Of a DNA stretch of 46,450 nt, positions 50 to 31,333 are shown one piece after another. Within the stretch, counting starts at the first letter, position 1. The number at the start of each line of letters is the position of its first letter. Position numbers and translations under genes: made by a program. The notes beneath the pieces were generated by a model that was not told where the DNA came from, made no database searches, and saw only the letters and a program-made list of their open reading frames with translations. Origin of the DNA: a virus; IMG/VR virus record IMGVR_UViG_3300034104_006069, positions 1 through 46,450 of that record; one strand, written 5' to 3'.

Positions 50-1009
50 TTAAATTTCAAATGAAGATAATGAATTTAGATGGGGATTCAAATCTAAAGA
101 CCACCCTAAGTCAGAAAAGAAACCTTCAAGTTTATTTAACAAGATGCTATCAAACACTTGTTGCTTATCAGCGTAGGCATCTAGAAACTGTTTAATTTTA
201 TCTGGCATATCATAATCTAGAAATGCTAGAGCCTCTATTTTATATGAATTATCTTTTAGATAGATCCATTTAACTTTATCAGACATAGTTATTAAATTGT
301 GTTTTTTATCTAAACCCCATAATCTTAATAAGTCATTGTATCGAGTTGCTGCTCGAACAGGAGCAGGTGCTCCTTTTTCTATTTGCGTAAATACTTCCCC
401 TGCTCTAGGTTTTTTGGTTGTGTATTTTTCTAGCTTTTTAACTGAAGTAGGGTTACCTAATTTGTTAATAGATATTTCTCCGTTAAGTACTTGCTTTTTA
501 AAGGTTTTAATTTGATTTAAAATATCTTTATGTTGTGCACCTTTTAGTACTTGTTCTAATATGCTATTAAAGAACTCTCCAAAGATAGGAGGGAAATTAG
601 CTTTCATAAACTCTAGACCTTTAATGTCTAGTTCCTCCTTAGTAATACCTTCCTTTTTAGTAATCCACTGAGCGTATCGTCTTGTAGCTCTGAAGTAAGC
701 TGAGCGAATAACACACTCAGTTTTCATTTCTAAACGGTGTTTATGCTCTTCCTCTCCAATAAAGTCAGGCACATTAAAACATTCTTTAGCTAAAACATTA
801 TAATGTTCAGTTATAATATTTTGATATTTAAGTGCTATTTCCTCTAGTATTTCATCTTTTTTTCCGTCATCAAAAGATTCAAAATCAGGGTATAGATATT
901 TTAAAAGTGGTTCGGCATTAAAGTAATTAGAATCTGTGTCAATGTAGGCACAAAAGTTAGTATCTCCTTCATCACAAACAAACCAAGGTGTTTCCTCTAA
1001 ATGTTTCAT
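50..1009 (-). CDS. Family B DNA polymerase, C-terminal part (split gene, subunit B)
   Basis: 319 aa. This is the palm motif C and thumb part of a family B replicative polymerase. Motif C reads YIDTDS near residues 22-27 with the two catalytic aspartates. RRYAQW (about 110) resembles the KKRYA motif, and DIKGLEF (about 128) resembles the KIMGLE segment of T4/RB69 gp43. The C-terminus ends in LSSFEI, a possible clamp-binding tail like the SLFDMFDF end of RB69 gp43. The ORF starts at an ATGA overlap with the stop of the upstream part, so the two are probably translationally coupled. Together they cover a normal polymerase with no obvious gap, so the two chains probably assemble. It could instead be an assembly frameshift, but the ATGA junction looks like a true gene start. 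Confidence 0.88.
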   Translation of the reverse strand: MKHLEETPWFVCDEGDTNFCAYIDTDSNYFNAEPLLKYLYPDFESFDDGKKDEILEEIALKYQNIITEHYNVLAKECFNVPDFIGEEEHKHRLEMKTECVIRSAYFRATRRYAQWITKKEGITKEELDIKGLEFMKANFPPIFGEFFNSILEQVLKGAQHKDILNQIKTFKKQVLNGEISINKLGNPTSVKKLEKYTTKKPRAGEVFTQIEKGAPAPVRAATRYNDLLRLWGLDKKHNLITMSDKVKWIYLKDNSYKIEALAFLDYDMPDKIKQFLDAYADKQQVFDSILLNKLEGFFSDLGWSLDLNPHLNSLSSFEI

Positions 1010-2712
1010 AGCGTTATTTGTCCTTTAATTACCTTGTTCATGTGACGATTTGCTGCTAAAGCAGATTCTTGAATAATTCTCCATCCACTCAATGTAATAG
1101 CCTCACTTAAGATAGAAAAGCTCATTCCATACCTAAATGAAGGTAAAGCTGTAGCACCATAGAGTGAGTTAAGTAGAATTTTCATTGTATATTGCATCAA
1201 ATGGTAATATTCACCTTTTTCTTTATCTCCTGCTTTATATGCTTTTTTCATCAAGTTTTTGTAGTCAACTCGTTCTTGGAACCATTTTTTCAATATAGTT
1301 GCTAAAGTAGATTCGCGATCGGTTTTAAACATAGACCCATTAGCTGAAATGGTCCATTTTTGTGTTTCTATAATGTTAATAAGTTTTTCTATCTCTACTC
1401 GAGCTTGCTTACCTTTAGGATTTTCAACTAGTACTGTATCATTTGGATCCATTTGCTTTAGATCTCCAAGACCTAATCTATTGTTTCTATCGTCAGCATC
1501 CAAAATTCTTCCAGTATATGTTTCTTTACCAATGTTTAAAGATATGATGATTGAAGGGTATAGTGAAGTTAAATCTTCATCAAACATATACTTGTACAAA
1601 CCTGCTTTAGGACAAAACAAATATCCACCAGCATATCCTTTTTTACTTTGTGGATTTGGATCTCTACGAGGTGGGATAATACCATTTCCTAATAAATAAG
1701 CTGAAATTGCTCCATCTTGGGTTACACTGTTTTGGTATACTTCACTGTAGTTATGTTTTCCTTTGTGAGCCAAGTTTTTTGTTAAACCAATGTATTGGAG
1801 TTTTTCGTCCAACGCTTTAAGGATTTCAACGTCGCGAAAGTTATATTCTATAAACTTGTGAATGTCAGTAGCAAATAATTGATCTAAATTTCCATCAAAT
1901 TCAATTTTATTTAATCCTGCATATTTTTCTCCAATAGCATCTAATTTCCAGGATGGTTCATCTTTCCAACTATATTTTTTATGCAAGCGCATATAGTCTA
2001 AAGATTCAACTCCTACAATTTGAACGTACTGATTTTCAACATACCAATAGTCATTACCTTTTTTGCATGTTATTTGGTTAATTGGAGATAAATAACTAGC
2101 TACTTCACTACCCAAAACATTGCACATTCGGTAGTATAGGTAAGGAATATCAAAGAAATCACTGTTGTATCCTATTAGTATGTCTGGATCAATTGATCTA
2201 AAATGTTCAATAAATTTAGTAAGCAATTGCCTTTCGGTAGCAATAGGGATAATTTCTTTATCTTCGGATTTAAAGGGTTGTAGTTGGTTTTGTTTGTCTA
2301 AAATTAAAATCACCCATTTGTTTGGGGTTTTATCCCAATACGCTATAGAGGTAATAGGCATAGGAGCCTTTTCAATGTATTCTTCAGTTAAAGCACCTCC
2401 AATTTCGCACTCTATATCGAAAAACAATTCTCTATGTCCTTTGGATGGAGTATCGTCTGTCTTATATCTTTCAATAAGGAATTTTTGGTGAGGTTTCATG
2501 TCATGAAAATGCAAATGGGTAGTGTTTTTATCCCATTTATAAACCCGTTTTAGGGGCTCATAATTTAAGCCCCTAAATTCAGATTCACTTTCATCACATT
2601 CTTGATAAGCGGCATTAGACCACTCAATCTCATCATAACCAGCTTCATCCCATAAGTGAATTTTATATTTATTTCCACCTAATCGAGTAGCATAACATTT
2701 TTTATAACTCAT
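1006..2712 (-). CDS. Family B DNA polymerase, N-terminal part: 3'-5' exonuclease, motifs A and B (split gene, subunit A)
   Basis: 568 aa. Exo I is FDIE at residues 98-101, Exo II is YNSDFFDIPY at 182-191, and Exo III is YNFRD at 290-294, so proofreading looks intact. Pol motif A is DLTSLYPSI from D380, and motif B is KILLNSLYG at 511-519. The protein stops about 50 residues after motif B, before motif C, which is the first recognisable element of the next ORF. It overlaps the preceding small gene by 4 nt and the downstream polymerase part by 4 nt (ATGA). Split gp43 genes are known in some T4-like Aeromonas phages. Function: phage genome replication together with the SSB, helicase and UvsX encoded further right. 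Confidence 0.92.
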   Translation of the reverse strand: MSYKKCYATRLGGNKYKIHLWDEAGYDEIEWSNAAYQECDESESEFRGLNYEPLKRVYKWDKNTTHLHFHDMKPHQKFLIERYKTDDTPSKGHRELFFDIECEIGGALTEEYIEKAPMPITSIAYWDKTPNKWVILILDKQNQLQPFKSEDKEIIPIATERQLLTKFIEHFRSIDPDILIGYNSDFFDIPYLYYRMCNVLGSEVASYLSPINQITCKKGNDYWYVENQYVQIVGVESLDYMRLHKKYSWKDEPSWKLDAIGEKYAGLNKIEFDGNLDQLFATDIHKFIEYNFRDVEILKALDEKLQYIGLTKNLAHKGKHNYSEVYQNSVTQDGAISAYLLGNGIIPPRRDPNPQSKKGYAGGYLFCPKAGLYKYMFDEDLTSLYPSIIISLNIGKETYTGRILDADDRNNRLGLGDLKQMDPNDTVLVENPKGKQARVEIEKLINIIETQKWTISANGSMFKTDRESTLATILKKWFQERVDYKNLMKKAYKAGDKEKGEYYHLMQYTMKILLNSLYGATALPSFRYGMSFSILSEAITLSGWRIIQESALAANRHMNKVIKGQITL

Positions 2713-2918
2713 AGCTCCATAGCAAGTTCAAATACCTCTTTAATATTAATATCATCAATATCAATAGGTACGAACCTTTCTTTGTTAAAGCAAGTATGAG
2801 GTGCAGGAGGGTTAACTCTTAGCAATACAAAATGTCCATTTTCAGTGACCATACATGCTTCATATATTTGTCCCTCTTCTAGAATTCCTGGGTGGCCTTT
2901 AATACATTTTAAGAACAT
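2709..2918 (-). CDS. Small hypothetical protein upstream of the DNA polymerase
   Basis: 69 aa, no family recognised. The N-terminal half (FLKCIKGHPGILEEGQIYEA) has the look of a small beta-barrel of the kind found in short phage proteins, with an acidic C-terminal half. Its end overlaps the polymerase start by 4 nt, so it is probably cotranslated with it. No signal peptide or membrane segment. Confidence 0.6.
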   Translation of the reverse strand: MFLKCIKGHPGILEEGQIYEACMVTENGHFVLLRVNPPAPHTCFNKERFVPIDIDDINIKEVFELAMEL

Positions 2919-4386: not shown

Positions 4387-5115
4387 CTATACCGGGTGGT
4401 TTCCATTATTGATCTTGATACTATCAAAAAATTCTTTGCGTGCTTGGTTGCTATTGTCCATAAATACGCCAGAAGCTTTTGTTGTCACCATAGATGCACC
4501 TTGATGTTTAACACCTCTACATGAAACACAATTGTGTGTTCCTACAACTGTAACAATTACACCTTTATTGTTTTCAGTAATTTTATCTACTGCTTGGTGG
4601 ATTGCAGAGGTAAGTTGTTCTTGAATTGCCCCTCTACGACCAAAGTGTTCTACAATTCGGTTTAGTTTAGAAAGACCAATTACTCTACCTTCTAAACCTA
4701 CCACGTAACCAATATGAACTACTCCTCCAATTGTTTGGTGGTGATGAGAACACATTGAAGTAAGTGGAATATTTCTTTCAATTACAATTCCGTCATATCC
4801 ATCACTTGGGAAAGATGTAATTTCAGACATTGGAGAAAATCTACCTTTCCACAAATCGTGAACATATGCTTTAGCTACTCGTTTAGGGGTATCAGCTGAA
4901 TTGGGGTCATTTTCCCAATCACAACCTAATGCAGTTAAAAATTCTCCATATGCTTTAGTAGCTTTTTGGATAATATCATTTTTTTCTATTTCAGTTAGCT
5001 CAGTTGCTTCTCCAAACAAAGCACGTTTAGCTGCTAATTGAGTTGAAATACCATTTGCAAACCCTACAGGTACTACCTCTAAATTTGTGTGTTTTTTCTT
5101 TCTATTATTTTCCAT
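4387..5115 (-). CDS. folE: GTP cyclohydrolase I (first step of 7-deazaguanine synthesis)
   Basis: 242 aa. It converts GTP to 7,8-dihydroneopterin triphosphate. The zinc and active-site motif is MCSHHHQTIGG with the Cys-His pair, and the second zinc cysteine lies in CVSCRGVKHQGASM, both typical of the T-fold enzyme. Length matches bacterial FolE including an N-terminal helix. The start is an ATG about 18 nt after a TTG-N20-TATATTTAC promoter, so folE is the first gene of a transcription unit that runs on to the PRTase and small genes. QueE lies just upstream. Phage folE normally serves DNA hypermodification rather than folate synthesis, which fits queC, queD, queE and dpdA here. Confidence 0.93.
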   Translation of the reverse strand: MENNRKKKHTNLEVVPVGFANGISTQLAAKRALFGEATELTEIEKNDIIQKATKAYGEFLTALGCDWENDPNSADTPKRVAKAYVHDLWKGRFSPMSEITSFPSDGYDGIVIERNIPLTSMCSHHHQTIGGVVHIGYVVGLEGRVIGLSKLNRIVEHFGRRGAIQEQLTSAIHQAVDKITENNKGVIVTVVGTHNCVSCRGVKHQGASMVTTKASGVFMDNSNQARKEFFDSIKINNGNHPV

Positions 5116-5165: not shown

Positions 5166-6020
5166 TTAAACACAACGTTCAGTACCAAAAGCCATAATAT
5201 GTTCTCTACCTGTAAACTTGTAACCATTATCTCTACAGTAGTTCATTACAACAGGGTAAGATTCAAATAGTGCAGGTCTATCATCTCCTGCAGGCATCAT
5301 CCAAGTATTGAATTTTAACATGTCTCGAATGTCATCTACATCAGATACTGTATAAAAGAATGCCTCTTGTACATCTCTTATACTCTGTAATTCTACAGCT
5401 AGTTTATCTAAAAATTCCTCGTATTCAGGGATAATAGCTAAATCCTTGTCAATAACTGGTTTTAGATGATAACTTTTGTGGTACGCAATCATTCTAGCAA
5501 TTGAACTATAGTTCAATCTAAATTTGTTGTGTTGATCAATCATTTTCTGGTCTGTGATCTTTCCCTGCGGGGTAGCAACCCCAAGAACGGGGACACTATT
5601 AGCAAACTTAGGAGAAATGCTAACGAGACCAATAGGATAATCGGTAGGGAGAAAATGCGATCCCTCAGTTTCAATGGTGATGAATATGTTTCTTTCATTT
5701 GCGAAATGTGTTAGTTCGTTTACTAAAGCAGGGTGCATAGTTGGAGCACCGCCTGTTAACATCATTTCTGAAATGTGAGGATTAGTGTCATACATTTTGA
5801 TGATGTCGTTAAAGGTAAATGTACCTTTTTCTGGATGGATACTTGTATACCAGCTGTCGCACCATCCACCTTCTCCAAAGAAACATCTGTGGGTACAACC
5901 TGTAGTTCTAATAACTATAGTTGGATAACCTGCTCTACTTCCTTCGGATTGAACCGCTGTATATAGTTCTACAATAGGTAATACCTTATTGTAGTCTTCA
6001 ATTCTACCTAATTTGTCCAT
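5166..6020 (-). CDS. queE: 7-carboxy-7-deazaguanine synthase (radical SAM)
   Basis: 284 aa. It forms CDG from 6-carboxytetrahydropterin. It starts with the QueE-like VELYTAVQSEGSRAGYPTIV, then has a radical-SAM cluster with TTGCTHRC followed by a third cysteine in GGWCDSW. The spacing is CX3CX7C instead of the usual CX3CX2C. The glycine-rich SAM motif is TGGAPTMH rather than TGGEP, and later ETEGSHF and SISPKF match the family. It sits between a small membrane protein and folE. The altered cysteine loop and the E-to-A change in the GGEP motif make the catalytic details worth testing, but the pathway context is strong. Confidence 0.88.
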   Translation of the reverse strand: MDKLGRIEDYNKVLPIVELYTAVQSEGSRAGYPTIVIRTTGCTHRCFFGEGGWCDSWYTSIHPEKGTFTFNDIIKMYDTNPHISEMMLTGGAPTMHPALVNELTHFANERNIFITIETEGSHFLPTDYPIGLVSISPKFANSVPVLGVATPQGKITDQKMIDQHNKFRLNYSSIARMIAYHKSYHLKPVIDKDLAIIPEYEEFLDKLAVELQSIRDVQEAFFYTVSDVDDIRDMLKFNTWMMPAGDDRPALFESYPVVMNYCRDNGYKFTGREHIMAFGTERCV

Positions 6021-6031
6021 GTATTTTTAAT

Positions 6032-6304
6032 TTAAACCAATTCCTCGTAAACTCCAATCAATTCAGCTAAAAATAAGCCTAGAAAACCTATTTCATACAT
6101 TCCCGCAAATCCTAAAAGACAAGCTGCAATTCTAACTCCAGATTTAACAAATGAAACTTGCTGATGGAGTTTAGGATTTGGAATATCCTTTAGTTTTTGT
6201 ACTGATTGTCTTTGACTAGCATCAAATAACTCTTTTTCAATTTCCTCGTTAAGGGATTTTTTTCTTCTACTCCTCATAACTTGCTGCATTTCTTTCGTTT
6301 TCAT
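6032..6304 (-). CDS. Small basic protein with one C-terminal membrane segment
   Basis: 90 aa, unrecognised. The N-terminal 45 residues are charged (SRRKKSLNEEIEKELF), followed by a hydrophobic stretch from about residue 58 to 85 (IAACLLGFAGMYEIGFLGLF). It overlaps the end of queD by 38 nt; internal ATGs exist at residues 6 and 10, so the true start may be slightly later. Lying between queD and queE suggests co-expression rather than shared function. Confidence 0.5.
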   Translation of the reverse strand: MKTKEMQQVMRSRRKKSLNEEIEKELFDASQRQSVQKLKDIPNPKLHQQVSFVKSGVRIAACLLGFAGMYEIGFLGLFLAELIGVYEELV

Positions 6305-6731
6305 ATACTTCTACTTTTGCTGCTTTTACTCTACCATCGGTTTCTACTGCTAGGAATTCATTAATAACTTCATAAAGATATTCTGCAAACTTTTCACATC
6401 CTGTAGCAGGTAAAATTCTTAGTTGTACTACTCCTGCTTCATCCATTCGTTTGAATGATTCTAGAAATGGATCATCTTCAGCTATAATCATAGTGTGATC
6501 TAGTAAAAAGGCAAAAAAATCTTTAGGTGATTTACCTTCAATGGTGTGTTTGGCTCTTTTCATACCACCAAAATCCCAAACCCAATTTCGCTCATCTAGT
6601 TCACCTTCGAACCATACTCTAAAAGATATAGCATATCCGTGTAGATATTTACAATGTGTAGTATCTGCTTTCCATTGTCTAAAGACGGTAGAATAACCAT
6701 CAAATAACTTACTTGATTTAAATGTTCCCAT
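6267..6731 (-). CDS. queD: 6-carboxy-5,6,7,8-tetrahydropterin synthase, QueD/PTPS family
   Basis: 154 aa. It converts dihydroneopterin triphosphate to 6-carboxytetrahydropterin. THCKYLHGYAISF is the zinc/active-site segment (usual form CxxLHGH), followed by VWDFGGMK, DHTMII and PATGCEKFAEYL, matching the DF, DH and PTxEN landmarks. The usual first zinc histidine is replaced in YSTVFRQW, and LHGH is LHGY; the histidine before the cysteine (THC) may serve instead. This FRQW...HC...LHGYA form looks like a real QueD subfamily rather than a dead enzyme. It lies 6 nt after the thioredoxin gene and overlaps the next small ORF. Confidence 0.85.
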   Translation of the reverse strand: MGTFKSSKLFDGYSTVFRQWKADTTHCKYLHGYAISFRVWFEGELDERNWVWDFGGMKRAKHTIEGKSPKDFFAFLLDHTMIIAEDDPFLESFKRMDEAGVVQLRILPATGCEKFAEYLYEVINEFLAVETDGRVKAAKVEVYENERNAASYEE

Positions 6732-9490: not shown

Positions 9491-9508
9491 AATAAGTTTA
9501 ATTAATAG

Positions 9509-9592
9509 TACCAGGAGCGGGAATCGAACCCGCACTCGCGTTGGCGAACAAGATTTTAAGTCTTGCGTGTCTACCTATTCCACCATCCCGGC
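9509..9592 (-). tRNA. tRNA-Leu (anticodon TAA)
   Basis: 84 nt class II tRNA. 5' GCCGGGA pairs with the 3' TCCTGGT (including G-U). The anticodon loop CTTAAAA gives TAA. The T-loop is GGTTCGATTCC. A long variable arm is present, as expected for Leu. CCA is not encoded. Confidence 0.92.
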
Positions 9593-9604
9593 ATTTAACA
9601 TAAT

Positions 9605-9636
9605 ATAAAGGTACGAAATGGAGTTTAAGGGACCAA
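9605..9636 (-). promoter_or_regulatory. Host-type promoter for tRNA-Leu
   Basis: Minus strand TTG (9636-9634), 20 nt, TACCTTTAT (9613-9605). The -7 element ends about 13 nt before the tRNA 5' end. The TTG lies within the end of the 58-aa ORF upstream. Confidence 0.65.
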
Positions 9637-9801
9637 TCTATTTTTTCTTTTCTCTAGCTCTTTTTCAATTGCTTTAATTTTTCTCTTTATTTTGTCAATT
9701 CTGATGCTTACATACCATTTGCCCATGTTGTTTACAGGTTTATAGTCTACCCAGTATTGCAATTCTTCTTGTAATTCTTTTAAATCTTTAAATAGTGCCA
9801 T
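9625..9801 (-). CDS. Small coiled-coil basic protein between tRNA genes
   Basis: 58 aa, just under usual cut-offs. It starts MALFKDLKELQEELQYW, has a central tryptophan pair and a C-terminal lysine-rich helix (IDKIKRKIKAIEKELEKRK). It lies between tRNA-Leu and tRNA-Glu with only 14 nt to the latter. No known function; a small helical RNA- or DNA-associated protein is possible. Confidence 0.5.
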   Translation of the reverse strand: MALFKDLKELQEELQYWVDYKPVNNMGKWYVSIRIDKIKRKIKAIEKELEKRKNRLVP

Positions 9802-9815
9802 ATGTTTTTGATTTG

Positions 9816-9887
9816 TACTCGATACGGGAATCGAACCCGTGTTTTATCCGTGAAAGGGATACGTCCTAACCCCTAGACGAACCGAGC
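9816..9887 (-). tRNA. tRNA-Glu (anticodon TTC)
   Basis: 72 nt. Acceptor GCTCGGT / ATCGAGT, anticodon loop CTTTCAC giving TTC, T-arm CGGGTTCGATTCCCG. Discriminator A. Confidence 0.92.
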
Positions 9888-9936
9888 GGGATATGACCTC
9901 TATGCTGTTCTTACGGTAAGCAACGAAGTACTGTTG

Positions 9937-10008
9937 AGCTCCCACTCGGAATCGAACCAAGTTATCATGATTACAAGTCATGCGCATCGCCAGCAATGCT
10001 TTAGGAGC
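9937..10008 (-). tRNA. tRNA-Thr (anticodon TGT)
   Basis: 72 nt. Acceptor GCTCCTA / TGGGAGC with one G-U pair, anticodon stem CATGA/TCATG with loop CTTGTAA giving TGT, and T-arm CTTGGTTCGATTCCGAG. The D-loop is slightly unusual (contains GCTGGC). Confidence 0.88.
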
Positions 10009-10014
10009 TGGTGC

Positions 10015-10164
10015 TGTAGAGGAAGGAGTCGAACCTTCACGGGGCAATTAGGTAAAGGACAAATAGCGCTTGCAAGCCGGTGGTCTACCCCAATATCCTT
10101 ACTTTATTTCGTTATCCCCGCCCACGAGACAGGTGGGCATGTCTGCCAATTTCAACACTCTACA
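10015..10164 (-). tRNA. 150-nt tRNA-like element, unusual; identity uncertain
   Basis: The ends form a perfect 7-bp acceptor (TGTAGAG / CTCTACA), with a normal T-arm (GAAGGTTCGACTCCTTC) and a Leu-like D-arm (TTGAAATTGGCAGACAT). Between them are two anticodon-like hairpins: CCCAC-CTGTCTC-GTGGG (loop would read GTC) and a GGCTTGCAAGC segment (TGC or GCA). A CGGGG / CCCCG pairing could close an exceptionally long variable arm of about 80 nt. It may be a class II tRNA with an insertion, two fused 5' halves sharing one 3' half, or a degenerate gene. It sits 6 nt from tRNA-Thr. Confidence 0.5.
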
Positions 10165-10194
10165 ATACAGAGATAATACCTTTCAATTTTTCAA

Positions 10195-10488
10195 TTACCC
10201 TTTTGGTACTTGAGTTTTTTGTCTACTAATTCTAGATTCTAGTTTATCTAATCTTGAGTCTAATTGAGAAAAAATTTCTCTTTCATTAAAATCTATTTTA
10301 GTACGCAATTCTCTAACTTCATCTTCAATTCTACGATGTATATCATTTACTACATCATTTGAACCTCTTTCTAAATGTTGAACTTTTTCTTTCAACTCTT
10401 TTACTAGAGTACCTACTCTAACAATAACCACAACTCCTAATATCAATAAAACTGTGACTACTCCTAAAACAAAATATACTACTTCCAT
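10195..10488 (-). CDS. Membrane-anchored coiled-coil protein
   Basis: 97 aa. An N-terminal membrane helix (VYFVLGVVTVLLILGVVVIV, residues 4-23) is followed by a long charged coiled coil (EKVQHLERGSNDVV...EREIFSQLDSRLDKLESRI). Topology suggests an inner-membrane anchor with a cytoplasmic or periplasmic coil; a spanin-like or host-membrane role is possible but unproven. It lies inside the tRNA cluster. Confidence 0.6.
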   Translation of the reverse strand: MEVVYFVLGVVTVLLILGVVVIVRVGTLVKELKEKVQHLERGSNDVVNDIHRRIEDEVRELRTKIDFNEREIFSQLDSRLDKLESRISRQKTQVPKG

Positions 10489-10542
10489 AATTTTCCTTTC
10501 TTTTTTAGTTTATAAATTTATTTAAGAAAGGTACTATCTCTG

Positions 10543-10616
10543 TGGGCCTTGCAGGAATCGAACCTGCCACCTTAACATTATGAGTGTTCTGCTCTAACCG
10601 AATGAGCTAAAGGCCC
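10543..10616 (-). tRNA. tRNA-Met (anticodon CAT)
   Basis: 74 nt. Acceptor GGGCCTT / AAGGCCC, discriminator A, D-arm GCTC...GAGC, anticodon loop CTCATAA giving CAT, and T-arm GGCAGGTTCGATTCCTGC. It looks like an elongator Met tRNA; a lysidine-modified Ile tRNA is the alternative. Confidence 0.9.
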
Positions 10617-10621
10617 GTATG

Positions 10622-10692
10622 TTATCCTACAAGGATTCGAACCTCGTCTAAGTGGACCAAAACCACTTGTGCTACCGTTACACCATAGGACA
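10622..10692 (-). tRNA. tRNA-Gln (anticodon TTG)
   Basis: 71 nt. Acceptor TGTCCTA / TAGGATA, anticodon loop TTTTGGT giving TTG, and T-arm CGAGGTTCGAATCCTTG with one G-U. It lies 5 nt from tRNA-Met. Confidence 0.92.
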
Positions 10693-11057: not shown

Positions 11058-11930
11058 TTAATTGTTATGGTTGTTTAATACTTGTTCTACGTGTGCTTTA
11101 GCTACTTCCCAAGTTACAGGTCCGGTTTCGTCTGCATAAGCAACTGGATCTGGTTTACCTAATTTAATAAAGGCTTCTATCCTCTCCACGCTACTTGCAC
11201 TTTTATAGTCACTAAACCACACTGGAATTTGTTGCATTTCTTTAAGGCTAGCCAATACACTAATTTCTTTTTCTACTAGGTGCTGGATTGGTTTGTATGA
11301 AGTATTTGTTCTTGAATATACTTCGTTAAAGTCCAAACCTAATTTTTCACACAACATTTCTCCATCTTGTAGAATACCGAACTTGTCTGTGTGTAGATAA
11401 GGTGTAAAGTGTCCAACTCTTCCAACATCCCAATTTCCAACTCTAAATGCTTGATCATCTGCATCTCTCCATTCTTGTCTGCAGTCTGGATAAATTGCAT
11501 GATCGCCTGCGTGAATACCTAATGCAATGTCACAAGTAGATTCGGTTTGAGTAGCAGTAGACAAAGCAATTGCTTGTACAATTGAGCTAAAGATTTTGTT
11601 ACGGTTAGGAACAACTGTAGCTTTCATGTTGTCTTGCTCGTAATGGCCTTCTGGTACTTCAGCTCCACCAGTTACGAGAGCAGAGTTAAGTAGTGGAGTT
11701 AAACCATCAAGCCTAATAACTTGATATTTAACTTTTCCATAAGGTTCTCCAACTCTATATAATAGGGTATTGATATAACTAACTAACTCTTGAGCTCGTT
11801 CAAGCTCCACCCTATGTTTCTGCCCATAGTCAAAAGATATTGCAATTACATTATCATATTCAGATAATGCTCTCAATAATAATGTTGAGGAATCCATTCC
11901 TCCGCTTAGTGATACTACTACGCTTTTCAT
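11058..11930 (-). CDS. queC: 7-cyano-7-deazaguanine (preQ0) synthase-like, zinc-cysteine cluster lost
   Basis: 290 aa (typical 220-240). It makes preQ0 from CDG with ATP and ammonia. The N-terminal PP-loop is LSGGMDSS (8-15), then ISFDYGQKH, VVPNRN and IYPDCRQE, all QueC signatures. In normal QueC a C-terminal SCY...CGxCxxC provides four zinc-binding cysteines. Here the equivalent region reads TNTSYKP, then an insert of about 30 residues, then SASSVERIEAF and GKPDPVAY, so the flanking sequence is conserved but all four cysteines are replaced. No glutamine-amidotransferase domain is fused. It belongs with folE, queD, queE and dpdA in a DNA-modification pathway. Confidence 0.85.
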   Translation of the reverse strand: MKSVVVSLSGGMDSSTLLLRALSEYDNVIAISFDYGQKHRVELERAQELVSYINTLLYRVGEPYGKVKYQVIRLDGLTPLLNSALVTGGAEVPEGHYEQDNMKATVVPNRNKIFSSIVQAIALSTATQTESTCDIALGIHAGDHAIYPDCRQEWRDADDQAFRVGNWDVGRVGHFTPYLHTDKFGILQDGEMLCEKLGLDFNEVYSRTNTSYKPIQHLVEKEISVLASLKEMQQIPVWFSDYKSASSVERIEAFIKLGKPDPVAYADETGPVTWEVAKAHVEQVLNNHNN

Positions 11931-30055: not shown

Positions 30056-31333
30056 TTAGTTGCTTTTTCCAAAGTCATAGTCATAACCTGTTTTTTCTTT
30101 TGTGTTTAGTTTGTATTTTTTAAATATATTTTGAATTTCTAGCATTTCATTCTGTTCTTGTTCATCCCAATCCAACAAAAACGAATCATATGTGTACAGA
30201 ACCAATTTCGTATTCTTTCCCATTAAGATACGCAACATATCCCACAATATCAAAATATTCTGAGCTGTTTCGTATCCTTGTAGCAAATAATTAAACAATT
30301 TTTGTGGGTTCATTTCCCCCACATTATTTTTTTCAATTTTATATCCAGAGATTGGCACCTCTATACTTCCCGTGTTTTCAAATTGCTCCCAGTTTTTCTC
30401 AATATATACCTGGCTTTTCTTAAAGAAATCAATATTTTTGTAAGATTCAAAAACTCCTCCATATAACTGCTTGAATGTAAGTTCTTTTGCCTTTGCGTAG
30501 TCCACTTTATATAAGGAAGCAAAATGAGCATGAATATCATCAACGGGAAAAACATAATCAATGAGACGAGCAGCCAAGCTAGGATGGTAAGCAGAAATAT
30601 CAATTTCAACAAATTTATCGTTACGTGGTATAAAGCTTTTTCTACAACCGTTTTCTTTATTGAGAGCCGCATAGTTAATTCCTCCAAATGTGTTTGATGG
30701 TCTTGTTGTTGTTGTTTTTAAATTGTATTGTGTATAGACAAAATCCGAATTTGTTTTAGTAAAATAATTTTCAAATTCGGGTTTATTGATATGTATCCCG
30801 TTTTGTTCAATAGCGTTAAACACTACTGTTACTTTATTGTTAAAAAACTTGTGATATTGTGTTTTGGGCTCACACATGTTTGGTAGCAAATCATTATACA
30901 TTTGCTCACACACCTCATAGTGTTTAACAATAGGGATAATTTTGTTTACCTCTATGTTTGAACCGTGGTTTCTATAAAATAGATCGTGTGTTGTTGTGGT
31001 TGGTCGTATATACGGATGAGGAGGGGGTGTGATGTCGAGCAAATGCTTAATTGGAAAATAATGTAATATTTCTTTCTTATCCCTACAATACAACACATCA
31101 AACTTTTGTAGAATTGCGGTAATGTGTTGCGATATTTCGTTTAGCGTTTCGCTATGGGACACCCCTAGCATAAAGCCTTTAGTTGCTAAAAGCGGGCGAA
31201 TATACACCAAAGATACAGTGTTTTGGATTGGGTGGATTTTATCATTTGAAGGTATTATCTCTATGAATGCTTCCTTGTATCCTAAATTGTAGAAACTTTT
31301 AAGTTGGTCTATGTCTTCTATTAGCCAGTACAT
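30056..31333 (-). CDS. Compact family A DNA polymerase
   Basis: 425 aa. Palm and fingers motifs are in family A order. TTTTRPSNTFGG (207-218) equals the TGRLSS segment. VEIDISAYHPSLAARL (242-257) is motif A with Asp245. KAKELTFKQLYGG (281-293) is the O-helix motif B with Lys and Tyr. LQGYETAQNI precedes motif C YTYDSFLLD with Asp383 (usual form VHDE). Residues 1-170 are probably a reduced exonuclease-like domain without clear catalytic acids. The usual thumb is short. It coexists with the family B polymerase. Possible roles: repair, primer replacement or DNA modification-related synthesis. Confidence 0.78.
   Translation of the reverse strand: MYWLIEDIDQLKSFYNLGYKEAFIEIIPSNDKIHPIQNTVSLVYIRPLLATKGFMLGVSHSETLNEISQHITAILQKFDVLYCRDKKEILHYFPIKHLLDITPPPHPYIRPTTTTHDLFYRNHGSNIEVNKIIPIVKHYEVCEQMYNDLLPNMCEPKTQYHKFFNNKVTVVFNAIEQNGIHINKPEFENYFTKTNSDFVYTQYNLKTTTTRPSNTFGGINYAALNKENGCRKSFIPRNDKFVEIDISAYHPSLAARLIDYVFPVDDIHAHFASLYKVDYAKAKELTFKQLYGGVFESYKNIDFFKKSQVYIEKNWEQFENTGSIEVPISGYKIEKNNVGEMNPQKLFNYLLQGYETAQNILILWDMLRILMGKNTKLVLYTYDSFLLDWDEQEQNEMLEIQNIFKKYKLNTKEKTGYDYDFGKSN

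What the first reader, a model, noticed from the sequence alone, without database searches (positions are those of the whole stretch)
50..2712. Replicative family B DNA polymerase split between motifs B and C
Exonuclease and motifs A and B are on one ORF and motif C plus thumb on the next, joined by an ATGA overlap with no missing sequence. Two chains must build one palm. Similar splits are known in a few T4-like phages (gp43A/gp43B), where homing endonucleases were implicated; none is seen here.
Basis: partly seen in the sequence, partly recalled or inferred. Interest (0 to 1): 0.6.

Follow-up and report, generated by a model that had tools for sequence, protein, structure and literature searches.

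The report
Phage DNA polymerase in two genes
This phage, and a large family of related aquatic phages that probably infect flavobacteria, makes its genome-copying enzyme as two separate proteins whose border cuts through the active-site domain, and most relatives carry extra genes in the gap, so the split is a stable, natural feature and not a sequencing error.

Summary
In detail: window 2712-1006(-) encodes exonuclease, motif A and motif B of a T4-type family B DNA polymerase (568 aa), and 1009-50(-) encodes motif C and thumb (319 aa), joined by ATGA at 1009-1006. Relatives show it is real and old. All 221 fetched loci (148 distinct junctions) of one clade are split at this point, with both catalytic halves conserved (dN/dS 0.02-0.12); 26 have the ATGA overlap, most others carry 0.2-4.2 kb of co-oriented genes between the halves. 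The nearest unsplit relative (L249) reads straight through, with a methionine where chain B begins. The known gp43A/gp43B split lies elsewhere (between motifs A and B). In a sister clade the same spot is split again, in several lineages with GIY-YIG homing endonuclease genes in the gap. A read-through model of a relative folds like RB69 gp43 (Z 35.7), the junction being a floppy loop. Best reading: an obligate, probably non-covalent two-chain replicase, translationally coupled, split once in the clade's ancestor at a site that homing endonucleases also use. Intron, intein, frameshift and error explanations are disfavoured. New variant of a known kind; assembly and activity are untested.

The parts
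1006..2712 (-). polB-A: N-terminal chain, 568 aa: N-terminal domain, 3'-5' exonuclease, palm motif A, fingers, motif B
   Evidence: ORF and motifs; PF03104, PF00136, PHROG 262; dN/dS 0.02-0.11
50..1009 (-). polB-B: C-terminal chain, 319 aa: rest of palm with motif C, thumb
   Evidence: ORF and DTDS; PHROG 262 565-851; YxDTDS kept in 188/188 clade members
1006..1009 (-). ATGA stop/start overlap joining A and B
   Evidence: sequence; same in 26 of 148 distinct junctions
1555..1575 (-). motif A DLTSLYP (A residues 380-386)
1156..1182 (-). motif B KILLNSLYG (A residues 511-519)
929..940 (-). motif C DTDS (B residues 24-27)
956..1009 (-). conserved N-terminal leader of B (MKHLEETPWFVCDEGDTN), matched in the unsplit relative L249 by MKNLEDVPEYICNGDEGN
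2709..2918 (-). upstream 69-aa ORF of unknown function overlapping the polB-A start by ATGA

Best explanation
The window encodes the replicative family B DNA polymerase of a T4-type phage as two obligate chains, A (exonuclease, motif A, fingers, motif B) and B (motif C, thumb), which probably assemble non-covalently into one gp43-like polymerase whose palm is shared by both. Shown: the two ORFs, seamless coverage of the family profile, purifying selection and conserved catalytic motifs in both, and fixation of the split at one point in a large clade of aquatic phages. Inferred: A and B are made in step by termination-reinitiation at the ATGA; the cut is tolerated because it falls in a flexible loop between the helix after motif B and the motif-C strand. 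Also inferred: the split arose once in the clade's ancestor, when a stop or frameshift appeared just before an existing internal Met, with or without a homing endonuclease; the junction then became a dock where coupled gene cassettes come and go.
For: 221 split loci, 148 distinct, none unsplit in the clade. One clade with 99% support; nearest outgroups unsplit. L249 is unsplit and colinear, with Met at the B start. Motif B in 187/188 and motif C in 188/188 members, dN/dS 0.02-0.12 in both chains. The read-through A-B model of relative L122 has pLDDT 89 and pTM 0.84 and matches RB69 gp43 over model residues 1-920 (Z 35.7, 794 aligned); the junction 576-632 lies between a helix and the motif-C strand, with 586-617 disordered. 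Coupled overlaps: A's stop is in ATGA (75/148) or TRATG (32/148), and the last cassette overlaps the B start by 4 or 1 nt in 89 loci. Occupied/empty pair: L001 carries a 123-aa DUF2452 cassette between TATGAAA repeats exactly at the window's junction, with flanks 96% and 99% identical. The site is re-split in the sister clade, with GIY-YIG/NUMOD endonuclease genes in some gaps. Precedent: phage 25 gp43A and gp43B co-purify and polymerise DNA (PMC2988022).
Against: No expression, complex or activity data exist. The fold was modelled as one chain of a relative (69%/68% identical to window A/B) with the stop read as Gln, so it shows fit, not assembly of separate chains. The homing-endonuclease origin is indirect: none is left in the window, and the L249 colinearity is equally consistent with a plain stop or frameshift. 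Whether the ATGA or the A-C0-B arrangement is ancestral is unresolved.
Confidence: 0.88

Rival explanations
1. Sequencing or assembly error, or a recent pseudogene: the stop is spurious or the gene is dead.
For: Metagenomic record; a single base would make such a stop.
Against: The same ATGA is in independent contigs with many synonymous differences; 148 distinct split junctions; dN/dS 0.02-0.12 after the split; catalytic motifs intact.
Confidence: 0.01
2. One chain is made after all, by programmed frameshifting or stop read-through at the ATGA.
For: The overlap is only 4 nt, and the two frames differ by one step in the window.
Against: In about 118 of 148 relatives the halves are 0.2-4.2 kb apart with other genes between; B keeps a start codon and a conserved leader.
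Confidence: 0.04
3. RNA or protein splicing rejoins the halves (group I intron or split intein, as in phage MIJ3 and Nanoarchaeum PolB).
For: Introns and inteins are common in phage polymerase genes (PMC2993671, PMC6892783); LR756508 has inteins in its PolB.
Against: The window has no intervening sequence at all; no Rfam intron in the window or in tested relatives; no HN[CST] intein end in the first 40 residues of B in 75 members; B begins with a start codon.
Confidence: 0.02
4. The split polymerase is no longer the replicase; another enzyme, such as the divergent family-A-like protein at 30056-31333, replicates the genome.
For: A conserved family-A-like ORF exists in the same phages (5 of 19 homologues hit PF00476, best E 1.3e-5).
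Against: Both PolB halves keep the catalytic motifs under strong purifying selection, alongside ORFs that by eye resemble T4-type UvsX, gp32 and helicase, and a 5'-3' exonuclease.
Confidence: 0.04

Closest known systems
gp43A/gp43B of Aeromonas phages 44RR2.8t and 25 (Straboviridae)
   Same: T4-type gp43 homologue made as two chains from neighbouring genes, with a homing endonuclease in the gap of phage 25; the two chains of phage 25 co-purify and are active (PMC2988022).
   Different: Split between motifs A and B (in the fingers), so motif B is on the second chain there and on the first chain here; phage 25 also has a group I intron; described in a few phages. Here the split is between motifs B and C and fixed in a large clade.
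PolB of Pseudomonas phage MIJ3 (split intein with HNH gene)
   Same: Phage PolB in two ORFs near motif C.
   Different: Cut inside motif C (DTD|S) by a split intein that could rejoin the chains; here no intein, and motif C is whole in chain B.
Split PolB3 of Methanobacteriales and Nanoarchaeum equitans
   Same: Family B replicase encoded as two polypeptides (PMC7776575, PMC4104785).
   Different: Cellular; attributed to erratic intein excision or trans-splicing; the exact split position was not compared here.
Split NrdA of phage Aeh1 (mobE insertion)
   Same: Essential enzyme split by a homing endonuclease into working separate chains (PMC2988022).
   Different: Different enzyme; the endonuclease is still in the gap.
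Split family A polymerase of OM43 phages MEP401/MEP402
   Same: Phage replicase in two ORFs with a small unknown ORF between, seen in most group members (PMC10580990).
   Different: Family A polymerase, about 43-kb genomes; cause unresolved there.

Membership tests
T4-type gp43 (family B DNA polymerase) | exonuclease motifs plus palm motifs A, B and C | tested here: met
T4-type gp43 (family B DNA polymerase) | gp43 fold over the whole length | tested here: met
   read-through model of relative L122 vs RB69 gp43, Z 35.7, model 1-920 vs 4-901; a relative's sequence, not the window protein itself
gp43A/gp43B split of 44RR/25 | split in the fingers, before motif B | tested here: not met
   window split is after motif B
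gp43A/gp43B split of 44RR/25 | homing endonuclease gene or untranslated insert at the gap | tested here: not met
   none in the window: the halves overlap by 4 nt; endonuclease genes present in some relatives
gp43A/gp43B split of 44RR/25 | chains co-purify and polymerise DNA | not testable with these tools
   needs protein expression
Fractured gene with split intein (MIJ3 type) | N-intein on chain A and C-intein on chain B | tested here: not met
   no intein-type end in 75 clade members; colinear with unsplit L249
Group I intron-interrupted polymerase | intron RNA between the coding parts | tested here: not met
   4-nt overlap in the window; no Rfam intron hit

The most novel reading that the evidence does not exclude
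A whole lineage of flavobacterial T4-type phages has turned its replicase into an obligate two-subunit enzyme divided between motifs B and C, and uses the split as a stable, translationally coupled insertion dock for cargo genes. A small conserved protein (C0, 87 aa) found between the halves in 111 of 148 loci may be a third polymerase-associated factor.
Probability: 0.35. Interest if true: 0.72.

Novelty: new variant of a known kind. Interest (0 to 1): 0.6.

Why it matters
Split replicases are mostly known as rare cases tied to mobile elements. Here the split is fixed across deep divergence, the unsplit sister gene is known down to the Met that matches the new start, and the same loop is split again in related phages with endonuclease genes still in place. 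That gives a series from intact gene, to gene split with a mobile element, to a split gene free of it, and to a split gene used as a cargo site. It also offers a natural split-polymerase scaffold whose assembly can be tested directly.

Tried and rejected
Group I intron: no Rfam intron match in the window, five split relatives or seven re-split loci. Intein: no C-intein end on B. Assembly error: rejected by independent relatives. Identity of C0: no Pfam or convincing PHROG family, no convincing solved structure by profile; AlphaFold gives a small alpha/beta model at pLDDT 71 with no Foldseek match below E 1; left as unknown. C0 is not elsewhere in the window or in the 113-kb close relative holding L002. 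Phage collection: best identity to either half about 33-34%, so no cultured member of the clade was found there (very near records may be left out). The apparent missing piece in LR756508 turned out to lie in its N-half ORF after an intein. Paper searches found no report of this split; subscription papers, including Petrov et al. 2010 on gp43 insertions, were not readable.

Full report
OBSERVATION. On the minus strand, window 2712-1006 encodes 568 aa with exo motif FDIECE, motif A DLTSLYP (380-386) and motif B KILLNSLYG (511-519), and 1009-50 encodes 319 aa beginning MKHLEETPWFVCDEGDTNFCAYIDTDS, with motif C at residues 24-27. The stop of A and the start of B share ATGA at 1009-1006. The PHROG 262 polymerase profile is covered at 79-567 by A and 565-851 by B, so nothing is missing. 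The gene upstream of A overlaps A's start by ATGA as well.

NOT AN ERROR. L002, L003 and L005, from other metagenomes, are 92.8-99% identical in protein, differ at 13-57% of synonymous sites, and keep the ATGA. dN/dS between the window and five relatives is 0.02-0.11 for A and 0.03-0.12 for B.

THE CLADE. Scans of IMG/VR with each half and with profiles gave 221 split loci of the window's clade, 148 with distinct junctions; no fetched locus in the clade has a continuous gene. The scans are capped at the best 80 per call, so a rare re-fused member could have been missed. Gap sizes: 28 at or below zero (26 ATGA), 2 at +9, the rest 207-4214 nt. Motif B is kept in 187/188 and motif C in 188/188 complete members. 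Six contigs in a GTDB scan encode relatives; four are from MAGs named Flavobacteriales or Flavobacteriaceae, one from an unnamed bacterium and one from a Pelagibacter MAG. The host is therefore probably flavobacterial, though binning of phage contigs is weak evidence.

ORIGIN. A 148-row tree and a careful 32-row IQ-TREE both put all window-clade splits in one clade (99% support), with unsplit L249 as sister and unsplit L233-L237/L247 next. L249 reads ...NRDMNREIGNKEMTIQ-MKNLEDVPEYICNGDEGNYVAYCDTDS, against split ...NRHMNKVMKGEISLEI* MKHLEEVPWMVCDENDTNFCAYSDTDS in L142: the start of B matches an internal Met already in the unsplit gene. A one-base slip before such a Met could produce exactly an ATGA (inference).

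RECURRENCE. In the sister (L148-like) clade the same stretch between motifs B and C is interrupted in L208, L218, L226, L240, L241, L242 and L224/L225, each beside unsplit neighbours; the trees need seven changes in all (bootstrap range 7-7). GIY-YIG or NUMOD endonuclease domains are in the gaps of L208, L226 and L240, and a SegE-type GIY-YIG ORF is in the gap of window-clade locus L294. Chain-A tails are shared within L208/L218/L226 and within L240/L241/L242, so some of these splits may have been moved between lineages by homing; seven is a count on the gene tree, not proof of seven separate events. LR756508, a distant jumbo phage, also divides PolB between motifs B and C and has inteins in both motifs.

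STRUCTURE. In relative L122 the two ORFs are in frame 9 nt apart, so a read-through of the single stop could be modelled: pLDDT 89.2, pTM 0.84. It matches RB69 gp43 at Z 35.7 with 794 residues aligned over model 1-920. The junction lies between helix 544-575 and the motif-C strand 633-637; 586-617 is disordered. This shows that the two chains together make a complete gp43 fold and that the cut is in a loop; it does not prove that they bind as separate chains. For another split gp43, phage 25, co-purification and activity are reported (PMC2988022).

EXPRESSION AND CARGO. A's stop overlaps the next start as ATGA in 75 and TRATG in 32 of 148 loci; the last cassette overlaps the start of B by 4 nt in 66 and 1 nt in 23. 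Cassettes lie on the same strand and include DUF6165, a mannose-6-phosphate isomerase-type cupin, DegT aminotransferase, glycosyltransferase-like, methyltransferase-like, formyltransferase and DUF2452 proteins. A small protein, C0 (about 87 aa), is in 111 of 148 gaps and rarely anywhere else among fetched loci; its function is unknown. L001 against the window is an occupied/empty pair with TATGAAA at both cassette ends.

COMPARISON. 44RR gp43A (498 aa) lacks motif B, and its gp43B carries motifs B and C, so the known T4-type split is at another place. MIJ3 is cut inside motif C by a split intein. Archaeal split PolB is attributed to erratic intein excision (PMC4104785). The present case is therefore a new variant of split PolB: new position, no splicing element, fixed in a large clade.

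VERDICT. A real, ancient, two-chain family B replicase. Steps shown: ORFs, junction, conservation, selection, single-clade fixation, unsplit colinear sister. Steps inferred: non-covalent assembly, coupled translation, origin by homing endonuclease or by a point change.

Noticed in passing
window 30056-31333 (-): 425-aa protein that looks like a divergent family A polymerase palm (TTRPSN..., DISAYHPS, YDSF); homologues at 50-98% identity in many of the same phages; 5 of 19 homologues hit PF00476. A second, unassigned polymerase-like enzyme.
   Followed up: partly
window 4387-5115, 5166-6020, 6267-6731, 11058-11930 (-): GTP cyclohydrolase I, radical SAM (QueE-like), PTPS/QueD-like and QueC genes: a 7-deazaguanine pathway, possibly for DNA modification.
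   Followed up: no
L016:141-408, L142:1619-1897, L128:7670-7930 and others: C0, a conserved 87-aa protein of unknown function sitting between polB-A and polB-B in 111 of 148 loci; also 3.7 kb downstream of an unsplit pol in L192.
   Followed up: partly
L160:7998-15922 (LR756508.1): Jumbo phage PolB divided between motifs B and C over about 3 kb, with an intein in motif B and another in motif C.
   Followed up: partly
L018, L024, L027 (4.2 kb gap), L007, L008 (2.9 kb gap): Sugar/glycan-type gene sets (DegT aminotransferase, glycosyltransferase-like, formyltransferase or GNAT) inserted inside the polymerase gene pair.
   Followed up: partly
L007, L008, L022, L024, L122, L135: Chain A carries extra C-terminal tails of about 25-45 aa (for example ...EQPRPMW*...ISPRPYGI*) in some lineages.
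   Followed up: no
window 9508-10692 (-): Five tRNA genes (Leu, Glu, Thr, Met, Gln).
   Followed up: no
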